Positions 1,209 through 5,100 of a stretch of 64,000 nt of DNA are shown here, in pieces. The notes below the pieces were generated by a model. That model was not told where the DNA came from. It made no database searches and saw only the letters and a program-made list of their open reading frames with translations. Source of the DNA: Lates calcarifer (taxonomy: Eukaryota; Chordata; Actinopteri; Centropomidae); assembly GCF_001640805.2 (NCBI RefSeq), contig NC_066853.1, forward strand, positions 25,684,378-25,748,377, in the 5' to 3' direction. A program made the position numbers and the translations under genes. The stretch's first letter is position 1, and each line of letters starts with the position of its first letter.

Positions 1209-1504
1209 GTGTGTGAGTCAGAGAGAAAGAAAGAAATACACAGAATTCTGAGAAATGTATAAGAATAATACAACAACTTAAAATAAATAAAACCATTTTT
1301 AATATATTCACAATGTCATGTACATGTGCATTGTTCTGGGTGCAGGCCATTCGTCTCTGAGTTTCTCAGGTAACAGCTACATCAAGTACAGATTGTCTGA
1401 CCGGCTGCAGACGGAGCTGAAACTCAGCCTGAGGATCAGAACGCTGCAGAGCCGAGGAATCATAATGTATACACACACTGAGCCCTGCACTGTCCTCAAG
1501 GTAT

Positions 1505-1566
<62 letters not shown>

Positions 1567-2120
1567 TGGTACTCTTCCATTTTTAAGGGACAGTCAGTGC
1601 TCCCTCACAAAGGCCATAAAACTGTTGCTCTGCTCTCTGTAAAATAAATGGAAGGAAAAATGATGTTAAAGTAATTTGGCATGTTTGTATAATGTCAGTC
1701 TTTTAAATCTGAAGTTTAAGCTATTATTATCTTTAACTTAATTAAATTTATTTTACTTACTAGATGTAATTAGAAGATGTATTTGATAGGTATTTCTGAT
1801 TCTCATTACAACTTGTCAGCACAACTTTAACACTCTAATTTAACACATTATTTTCTGTTATTTTTTTTCTTCTCTATTTTTCTAGAATACTTTACATGCC
1901 ATATTTATGATGAAAACACAAGGAAAATGCATTTTGCAAAGTTGCAGAAGCATCTAGAGTGTGTACTTGTTATGCACAGCCATAACTGTTAATTAGAAAG
2001 AAAGAAAACAGTCTTTCCATGAAAATAATCCTAACAAGGGATTTTTGTTTGATAGTTTGATAGAAGATGTGAAGATTTGCCTTTAATGAATTTCCTGATT
2101 AGATGTACTCTGCAACATTA

Positions 2121-2161
<41 letters not shown>

Positions 2162-5100
2162 CAGTTGGAAGAAGGGAAGCTGTGGTTCCAGCTGGCCTGT
2201 GGCCTTGGTGGGGCTGGGGGCGGAGGTGGTGACAGTCCTAACATGTTGGGAATCTCGGGCCGTCGCATCAGTGATGGTAGCTGGCACACTGTGGCACTGG
2301 AGCTGAACCGTAACTTCAGCAGCCTGGCCCTGGATGACAGCTACGTTGAGCAGCGCCGTGGACCTCCATACATACAACCACTCGCTCCGGATAGAACCAT
2401 CTACTTTGGAGCACTGGTAAGTCCATGAGTAGCTCTAGCTGCCATATGGAGGTAATCATCATTATTATCATTACTGCTTTATTTGATAGGGACAGATGCA
2501 GTATACATAGACCATGATTGAAAACAGCCATCCAGTGCACGTATCAAGTGCAACTGTTTATAGCAGATGCTGATTTGCAATAACCATCCCCAGAGGGGCC
2601 TTTGTGAAAATAAGAGAGAGATTAAAACAGTGAGGTAAAAAGAATAAAAAGATAAACCAAGTACAAGAAGATACAATAAAATACACATTTACAGAAAAAT
2701 AGAGTAGTGAGGTAAAAAGAAAGGGAGGGAATAAGAAAAAGTTTACTTGAGAACAACAGGACATAATAAAACACACATTTAGTAGTAACATAGCTACAGA
2801 AAACTAGTCAGAGGTCAGGTTTGGCTCGTATTTCCAGGACTTTGCTCACAGAAAAAGCTGTTTGAGCAAAAGATGTTTTGCAGGATGAAACTTTACAGTT
2901 GCCACTCAAAGCTGCTCTTGTGGTTCTGCTGCAGAGCTGCAGTCTCTTGATGTATTTGTAGAGTTTGAGAAGTTCATTTACATTTCATTTACATAACGGA
3001 AATCAATGAAATTCAAAACACAGTCAAATGTCATGCAATTTTTTATCATGTCATCATCAAGTTCAGCCTTAGTCATTTTACAAATCTTTTTAACTTAATT
3101 TTTTAAATTGATTTAATTTAAATATTCCAAAGTACTTCACCTCTGTTAGTTGTTAAATATTTTCACCTTTAATTCCAACATGCAAGTAACTTTTCAAAAG
3201 AAAAACAGATAGACTCTGTTCTCTTGTTGTTTAACATCAAACAGGAGGCATCAAGCCAGGCTGATACTTTGATTCTGTTAGCTTATCTGCAGTGGCATCA
3301 CACTGCGTCGTCAGTGTACGTCTGAAGATCTATAACAGGGCAGATTTCTGGAGTCGTCAGTCGTTAATATACAAACTGAGAAGGGTGAAACCAAACAATG
3401 TCTCAAAGCAGACTTGATGTTATTAATCACAAGACAGTGTTCATGACCCTTTTAACATGAGTCAAACCATGACAGTGACCATTTTGACAAACTGAACATT
3501 GAGAGTTTTGAACTGAAGGTGTTGTGATTTATGATGCCAAATGCCTCTTTTAAATCTAGAAACACTTCACCTACTAACTGTCCTTTATCAAGTGACTGCT
3601 TTATATTTTCTAGTAGTAAACATGTGGCTGACTCTGTGAAATGGTTATATTTGAAACCAAACTGAAATAATGGTTTGTCTCTAAGTGATGGAGCACTTGT
3701 TCTGCAGTTCAGCAACTGATTTTTTTGTTTGTTTTTCTATCAAGCTCATTATTTTCATGTGTGATGAAAATCTGTCTGAATCCAAGTTTCTGCTCTTGTT
3801 TACATTAAAGACCACTAAATTTTTATCGCTGTCCTAACTTACTGGTGGAGTTGTCAGGGCTGTGTGCAGGACTGAAAACGTTCCTCCACTGGAGAGTATT
3901 TCAGATTTCAAAAGTCAAAAATCACATCATCTTTATGTCTACACTTAGTATTCTCCTCAAAAACACTAAAGCTCCTTATAATAAAGATACAAACAACATT
4001 ATCTGTCTCTCCCTCTATCAAGGACACTTGAGGACACATGATTGTAATACAACAGAGGTAGGCTTTTGAGAAATCATCATTTTGAGGAAAGAAATACATT
4101 CCATCACATTATTAGACCTTGAGGATACACACACTATGTTTTCATGGGTAACAGTGAAGGTAACCATATATAAGCAATATTAATAATGATAGTAATGACC
4201 TTGACCTTGGTTTTGGATTGCTGAGGGACCAACTGGAGTATTTTTTAAGTTACAGCCCTGCACAGTTTAACCCAGTTCTCTTAACTATCATTAGACCTAT
4301 CTATGTTCCACAAGCTCACTGTATTGTAGATGACATTTTGATTTTATCTTTATTTCCCTTCCAAAAGTAGAGGTTTGGAAACCAGAATGTGGTTAGGCTG
4401 TGGAGCTGCTCTGTGGCTGAATGTTGACAGGAATGATGAAAGTCCAACCCAGCACTCTTCTGCTCCTCCATTTGTCCCCCACTTGGTCCAGTTTTCACAG
4501 CTTGTGGGTGTGTTTGTAAGTTAATCTATGAATTCCTAACCTCTCTTACAACAGGTGCAGCACCCCAACTCTCGCAGCCTCATGGACTCCCAGAAGGATC
4601 CACGGGTACTTGAGGGTTTCCAGGGCTGCCTGGACTCAGTCATGTTGAACAACAATGAGCTGCCACTGCAAAACAAACGTTCACGCTATGCAGAGGTGGT
4701 GGGTCTGACAGAGTTGAAGCTGGGCTGCATCCTCTACCCCGACGCCTGCCTGCAGCAGCCCTGTCGCAATGGAGCCACTTGCACCAGCCTGCCCTCTGGT
4801 GGTGAGTAAAAGGAAGTACAGCAACTTTTACTGCAACTGGGCATTAGCTAAAGATGAATGTAAAGGAAAAACAGATTAAACAGTTTGTATGTGGAGCTTT
4901 ATGTCACAGATAAATTAAATATATCATGATGTAGATACACACATACTTGTTAGTAGGAAACATTCAGTGTTGGTTTGGGTCTTTTTGTGGGATTTAATAT
5001 GCCTGACTGCTCCAACAACAGCTCCAGGTGAATTTGAAGTCACTTTGAAGATCTGAATAACCCAGACTCATTTATCACCAGTAATCAGTCCAAGCTAACT

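What the first reader, a model, noticed from the sequence alone, without database searches (positions are those of the whole stretch)
1501..2164. fat3 intron with complementary (CA)28 and (TG)18 tracts at its two ends: a candidate self-bridging intron
The donor is followed within five bases by (CA)28, and the acceptor is preceded directly by (TG)18 with no usual polypyrimidine tract. In the transcript the two tracts can pair and bring the splice sites together. A class of teleost introns with AC repeats at the 5' end and GT repeats at the 3' end has been reported to splice through such pairing with little need for U2AF2 (I recall this from work of the Fairbrother group, about 2016; not checked here). 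Because both tracts are length-variable microsatellites, laminin G exon inclusion in fat3 could vary between individuals.
Basis: partly seen in the sequence, partly recalled or inferred. Interest (0 to 1): 0.75.

Follow-up and report, generated by a model that had tools for sequence, protein, structure and literature searches.

The report
Fish gene intron with matching repeats
An intron of a fish fat3 gene carries complementary CA and TG repeats at its two ends, which probably let the RNA fold back and bring the splice sites together, as already described for a group of zebrafish introns; here the folded-out loop also holds a strong false splice site.

Summary
Folding pairs all 37 GU-tract bases with the CA tract. 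This is the anatomy of the published (AC)m-(GU)n class (Lin et al. 2016, seen only through citing papers): a new member of a known kind. (1) The loop holds one of the five best-scoring acceptor-like sites on the window's + strand (AG 1884-1885), while the true acceptor scores very low; decoy use gives an early stop. (2) In relatives, GU-rich acceptors are commoner than CA-rich donors (VCVC/CVCV in 7 of 31, HTHT/THTH in 1 of 39), but neither tract is seen long in any of 88 proteins; one relative's short intron has a GU-rich end and no CA tract. So the long pair looks recent and is not generally required. (3) Predicted pairing is near certain from four repeats per side, so ordinary length variation should not switch it. 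No clear second member was recognised at 32 sampled sites of the same genome. Splicing itself was not testable.

The parts
1074..1208 (+). exon (EGF-like part) upstream of the laminin-G exons
   Evidence: translation DASCAVLSEQCEDQPCPADMQCVSVEATRGRYACQCPPGKLGECAG
1346..1500 (+). exon E2 before the intron; ends TVLK, phase 0. No Pfam match on its own; assigned by homologues
1501..1505 (+). donor GTATG (rough score 4.23; the six fat3 donors scored span 3.08-6.64)
   Evidence: recalled weight table
1506..1561 (+). (CA)28 tract
1861..1885 (+). strong acceptor-like decoy: pyrimidine run ending TTTTTCTAG, with yUnAy motifs (A at 1830, 1838, 1843) 42-55 nt before its AG
   Evidence: score 9.08, reached by 5 of 4370 AGs of the + strand, itself included; use would give a stop after 23 codons
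2095..2099 (+). candidate branch point CTGAT, A at 2098, 66 nt before the acceptor (motif match only)
2123..2159 (+). GT repeat, 18.5 copies, complementary to the CA tract
2160..2164 (+). acceptor AGCAG (true 3' splice site after 2164; GAG/CAG tandem)
2165..2416 (+). exon E3, laminin-G, 252 nt, phase 0-0, so skipping keeps the frame
   Evidence: PF02210, E 2e-8; E2-E4 translation open

Best explanation
A spliceosomal (AC)m-(GU)n bridging intron. Shown: complementary tracts at both ends, directly next to the splice sites. Computed: in the RNA the GU tract pairs along its whole length with the (CA)28 tract, the first and last G of the intron stay unpaired, and about 560 nt including a strong decoy acceptor are looped out. 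Inferred: this brings the donor next to the weak GU-rich acceptor, favours that pairing over the decoy at 1885, and makes up for the missing pyrimidine tract. Inferred from relatives, weakly: a GU-rich acceptor is the older half, and the long paired tracts grew later in this lineage, so here the bridge is an added aid rather than an ancestral need.
For: Tracts and borders. Fold: 37 of 37 GU-tract bases pair with the CA tract, also with the flanking exons included; 29 of 30 loop-shuffled controls keep all 37, one keeps 35. MFE -188.7 against -133.7 without CA and -113.3 without GT; 38% below the GC-regressed expectation of 92 windows of equal length (z -3.8), none of 13 GC-matched windows as low; pairs between first and last 70 nt are 40 here against a mean of 6.3 and a maximum of 28 in the 92 windows. 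True acceptor -5.28 (1464 of 4370 AGs reach it) against decoy 9.08 (5 of 4370), so something other than this score must pick the true site. The class is described in passages of PMC9024468, PMC9198270 and PMC7404189. The pattern of a donor-like site before (CA)12 counts 72 forward and 216 reverse in this genome, the reversed control 99 and 33, 288 against 132 in all; variable gaps are counted more than once.
Against: No splicing data. No relative shows a long tract: (HT)4+ and (VC)4+ occur in 0 of 88 proteins, HTHT/THTH in 1 of 39 readable donors. P0081 has a 30-codon intron with a GU-rich end and no CA tract. At 32 scanned donor-(CA)12 sites of this genome a GT tract followed by YAG lies within 6 kb in 6, a CA tract followed by YAG in 8, so no excess of partners; of six sites read by eye none is a clear second bridging intron. 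14 of 92 windows have as low an MFE, none of the GC-matched ones, and the per-nucleotide MFE (-0.284) is like that of the intron 4802-5568 (-0.288). Pairing covers donor positions +4 to +6 and nearly reaches the acceptor, which could hinder U1/U6. That introns often hold strong pseudo-acceptors which stay unused is general knowledge.
Confidence: 0.5

Rival explanations
1. Neutral microsatellites. Short CA and GU seeds next to the splice sites expanded by slippage; splicing is carried by exon definition and ordinary factors, and the duplex has no role or a slightly harmful one.
For: Short seeds are visible in relatives: P0125 has VSTHTHTQ after the donor, P0123 and P0140 are CA-rich, and 7 of 31 acceptors hold VCVC or CVCV. 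Long tracts are seen in none of 88 proteins. No excess of paired partners in the genome sample.
Against: The true acceptor has no usable pyrimidine tract and competes with a far stronger decoy. The CA tract is the longest dinucleotide repeat that one search lists for the window, and its complement sits at the other end of the same intron.
Confidence: 0.3
2. Protein-read repeats: hnRNP L on the CA tract and TDP-43 or CELF proteins on the GU tract set inclusion of exon E3, without the RNA duplex.
For: Missplicing of CFTR exon 9 needs TDP-43 on UG-rich sequence before the acceptor (start of the abstract of PMC12171016, listing). HNRNPL-AC and TARDBP-GT length relations are reported (passages of PMC13174678). 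E3 skipping keeps the frame. GU-rich acceptors recur in relatives.
Against: TDP-43 bound close to a splice site represses it (passage of PMC13343711), while E3 codes part of a laminin-G domain that one would expect to be kept. A 37-bp duplex would hide both binding sites. CELF binding is recalled, from no call.
Confidence: 0.25
3. The GU tract folds by itself into a pUG quadruplex that marks or blocks the acceptor.
For: 12 GU repeats suffice for a pUG fold, and such repeats are enriched near splice sites in human (passages of PMC12276007); this tract has 18.
Against: The CA partner is longer than the GU tract, and the predicted duplex is very stable (-75.5 kcal/mol). No 12-repeat GU tract is visible in the relatives, though their frames are cut at a start codon.
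Confidence: 0.05

Closest known systems
(AC)m-(GU)n bridging introns of zebrafish and other fish (Lin et al., Genome Res 2016; paper not held, known through passages of citing papers)
   Same: AC repeats right after the donor, GU repeats right before the acceptor, predicted end-to-end hairpin with the terminal Gs unpaired, low free energy for its composition.
   Different: U2AF2 independence untested. The free energy is 38% below expectation here, against 50-100% quoted for zebrafish. The loop holds a strong decoy acceptor. Long tracts are not seen in the relatives at hand.
CFTR intron 8 (TG)m(T)n acceptor
   Same: Long UG repeat before a weak acceptor.
   Different: Here a complementary CA tract lies at the other end of the intron and no T tract follows the repeat (the T tract of CFTR is recalled).
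Rbfox RNA bridges (title seen in the reference lists of PMC7404189 and PMC9977717)
   Same: Long-range intron pairing changes distances within the transcript.
   Different: As I recall them, those bring a protein-binding site near an exon; here the two splice sites of one intron are joined.

Membership tests
(AC)m-(GU)n bridging introns | AC repeats near the donor | tested here: met
   (CA)28 from intron position 6
(AC)m-(GU)n bridging introns | matching GU repeats near the acceptor | tested here: met
   GT repeat ending 5 nt before the splice site
(AC)m-(GU)n bridging introns | predicted fold across the whole intron with splice sites close and terminal Gs unpaired | tested here: met
   37 of 37 GU bases paired; pairing probability 0.009 for the first G and 0.002 for the last G
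(AC)m-(GU)n bridging introns | free energy 50-100% below conventional introns of the same length (as quoted in PMC9024468) | tested here: inconclusive
   38% below the GC-regressed expectation, z -3.8, 14 of 92 windows as low without GC matching, and per nucleotide like one of the four fat3 neighbours
(AC)m-(GU)n bridging introns | branch point masked in a double-stranded part (seen in the example intron quoted in PMC9024468) | not tested
   candidate A2098 is a motif match only
(AC)m-(GU)n bridging introns | splicing without U2AF2 | not testable with these tools
   needs RNA experiments
(AC)m-(GU)n bridging introns | pairing kept by selection (reported for the class, not a strict criterion) | tested here: inconclusive
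   long tracts in 0 of 88 proteins of relatives; HTHT/THTH in 1 of 39 donors, VCVC/CVCV in 7 of 31 acceptors; mostly unnamed species, translated frames only
fat3 (protocadherin Fat 3) | close homologues named Fat 3; laminin-G and EGF parts | tested here: met
   P0057, P0058 and P0142 carry Fat 3 names, four others Fat 1/2/3; PF02210; no tree against FAT1 was made
pUG quadruplex | 12 or more uninterrupted GU repeats | tested here: met
   18 repeats; folding itself not tested

The most novel reading that the evidence does not exclude
A recently completed bridge. A GU-rich acceptor is old and sub-optimal, and a strong decoy acceptor stands in the intron; growth of the complementary CA tract at the donor, and lengthening of the GU tract, then enforced the right pairing by looping the decoy out. 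The locus would show how AC-GU introns are born: GU-rich half first, CA half as a compensating partner. (Lowered from 0.2 after the recount, which shows that the long GU tract too is not seen in relatives.)
Probability: 0.17. Interest if true: 0.55.

Novelty: new member of a known kind. Interest (0 to 1): 0.32.

Why it matters
It offers a natural test case for structure-driven splice-site choice: one intron in which the ordinary acceptor signal and the structural signal point to different sites of very different strength. The order of events hinted at by relatives (GU-rich half first) could help explain how this fish intron class arises from microsatellites. By itself it is one more member of a described class.

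Tried and rejected
A poison exon starting at 1886 was considered: the best donor-like site after the decoy scores only 1.57; not pursued. The loop as a repeat: no other copy by blastn in the window or in 63 loci, 297 kb; the whole-genome search did not complete. Further bridging introns in the same genome: pattern counts; of the listed places I made out 53 distinct sites by hand; 32 regions were fetched and one site in each scanned, a second site inside L032 was not; six were read by eye, without gene models, and the GT-YAG hits of L033 and L049 were not read. Paralogues of fat3 in the same genome: not completed. Splice-site scores use weight tables recalled approximately, not a published program. 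My first count of relatives used a looser test for GU than for CA; one search repeats it with equal tests.

Full report
What is there. The intron 1501-2164 (664 nt) begins GTATG followed by (CA)28 at 1506-1561 and ends with a GT repeat at 2123-2159 followed by AGCAG; both repeats are free of mismatches. I rebuilt six exons of the gene (1074-1208, 1346-1500, 2165-2416, 4555-4801, 5569-5722, 8282-8982); joined, they read through without a stop as laminin-G, EGF, a hydrophobic segment and a cytoplasmic part of a FAT-type cadherin (the hydrophobic segment by eye). Exon 2165-2416 matches Pfam Laminin_G_2; exon 1346-1500 alone matches no Pfam family and is assigned by homologues. Three homologues are named protocadherin Fat 3 or Fat 3-like (P0057, P0058, P0142) and four Fat 1/2/3 (P0031, P0088, P0128, P0141). 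A melatonin-receptor first exon lies at about 42.7 kb, in keeping with the recalled FAT-MTNR1 neighbourhood. No tree against FAT1 was made. The junction TVLK|LEEGKLWFQ agrees with the uninterrupted TILKIEEGKLWFQ of P0058.

Folding. In the minimum-energy fold of the intron all 37 bases of the GT tract pair with the CA tract; the same holds with the flanking exons, and in 29 of 30 folds with a shuffled loop (35 bases in the other). The energy is -188.7 kcal/mol, -133.7 without the CA tract and -113.3 without the GT tract. The first and last G of the intron stay unpaired, but donor bases +4 to +6 are paired with probability 0.80 to 0.98, which the spliceosome would have to open. Compared with 92 windows of 664 nt from the same 64 kb, the intron lies 38% below what its low G+C content predicts (z -3.8); 14 of the 92 are as low, none of the 13 matched in G+C; pairs between the first and last 70 nt average 6.3 in the windows, at most 28, with 9 of 92 at 20 or more, against 40 in the intron. 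Per nucleotide it equals the intron 4802-5568 (-0.284 against -0.288).

Length. I refolded 19 combinations of tract lengths. Pairing probability is 0.996 already at (CA)4/(GT)4 and lowest, 0.884, at (CA)4/(GT)18; the number of pairs is set by the shorter tract, and the energy weakens as tracts shorten. This is equilibrium folding only; kinetics and competing proteins are not covered.

On a rough acceptor weight table (recalled frequencies) the true acceptor scores -5.28, a value reached by 1464 of the 4370 AGs on the + strand. AG 1884-1885 in the same intron scores 9.08, reached by 5 of 4370 including itself. The five other fat3 acceptors scored lie between -0.13 and 9.87. Motifs fitting yUnAy stand 42-55 nt before the decoy; for the true acceptor the nearest is A2098, 66 nt away. 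Use of the decoy would add a stop after 23 codons. The best donor-like site after it is weak, 1.57, so a poison exon is not obvious. In the bridging fold the decoy lies in the loop. Whether the bridge is what keeps it silent is inference.

Relatives. The protein database holds translated frames, many of them apparently genomic, that run from an exon into the intron. Searches gave 66 and 39 proteins, 88 distinct in all (P0058 to P0145). 46 show the end of the upstream exon, one of them spliced; 39 have at least four intronic residues. Equal tests on both sides: HT or TH in the first ten residues of 6 of 39 donors, VC or CV in the last ten of 14 of 31 acceptors; HTHT or THTH in 1 of 39 donors (P0125), VCVC or CVCV in 7 of 31 acceptors; no long run, (HT)4+ or (VC)4+, in any of the 88. 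Six of the 31 acceptors have an IVDG or IIDG exon start that I take for land vertebrates, and none of these six holds VC or CV. P0081 reads from the upstream exon through 30 codons with a GU-rich end and no CA tract into the downstream exon. Rows without enough residues or without the motif were dropped by the script. Species are mostly unnamed, upstream sequence is cut at a start codon, and a CA tract beyond the first stop codon would be missed. The picture is that GU-rich acceptors are commoner than CA-rich donors, and that both long tracts belong to this lineage as far as can be seen.

The same genome. The window lies in a 673-Mb assembly. The pattern AGGTRWG, 0-8 bases, (CA)12 gave 72 forward and 216 reverse counts, the reversed control 99 and 33; sites with variable gaps are listed more than once, and the totals are 288 against 132. 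Of the listed places I made out 53 distinct sites, fetched 32 regions with 6 kb downstream and scanned one site in each: a (GT)8+ tract lies within 6 kb in 15 of 32 and is followed by YAG within 13 bases in 6 of 32; the like-sense control (CA)8+ gives 12 and 8 of 32. So there is no excess of partners, and many sites are probably not true donors. Of six sites read by eye, none shows evident coding exons on both sides of a CA-GT intron; L037 has both tracts and both splice-site dinucleotides within 102 nt but no evident coding frame beside it. Further searches (paralogues, loop copies, acceptor patterns) did not complete.

Literature. Lin et al. 2016 (Genome Res 26:12-23, doi 10.1101/gr.181008.114) is not held. 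I saw passages about it in PMC9024468, PMC9198270 and PMC7404189: AC repeats near the donor and GU repeats near the acceptor fold across the intron, free energies are 50-100% lower than in conventional introns, and splicing goes without U2AF. The figure that about a tenth of zebrafish genes hold such introns is recalled and comes from no call. Rivals rest on passages of PMC13343711 (TDP-43), PMC12276007 (pUG fold) and PMC13174678 (repeat length and RNA-binding proteins), and on the start of the abstract of PMC12171016 (listing).

Verdict. The anatomy matches the class, so I file the intron as a probable new member, with U2AF2 independence untested. What adds interest is the contrast between a very weak true acceptor and a strong looped-out decoy, and the hint that GU-rich acceptors came before the long pair of tracts.

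Noticed in passing
L039 (own genome C2:4657959-4664297): A TPP2-like gene has a CA tract just after an AGGTATG donor-like site and a (GT)27 tract in an intron about 250 nt downstream, so the complementary tracts lie on either side of a short exon; pairing would loop that exon out.
   Followed up: partly
L037 (own genome C1:8676129-8682466): A 102-nt stretch GTGTGG-(CA)n-spacer-(GT)18-GAGCAG that looks like a tiny bridging intron but has no evident coding frame beside it.
   Followed up: partly
P0081 (protein): A relative in which the homologous intron seems to be only 30 codons long, open in frame, with a GU-rich end.
   Followed up: partly
31713-32084: Tandem array of 72-bp units inside a 629-aa open frame at 31102-32991; looks like a coding repeat.
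   Followed up: no
62301-63014: A 237-aa open frame that by eye resembles a transposase-derived protein; not searched.
   Followed up: no
42413-42844: First exon of a melatonin receptor (type 1A and 1B match about equally), with a TG repeat at 42897-42942 shortly after it.
   Followed up: partly
6394-6436: CT repeat of 21.5 copies in a fat3 intron.
   Followed up: no
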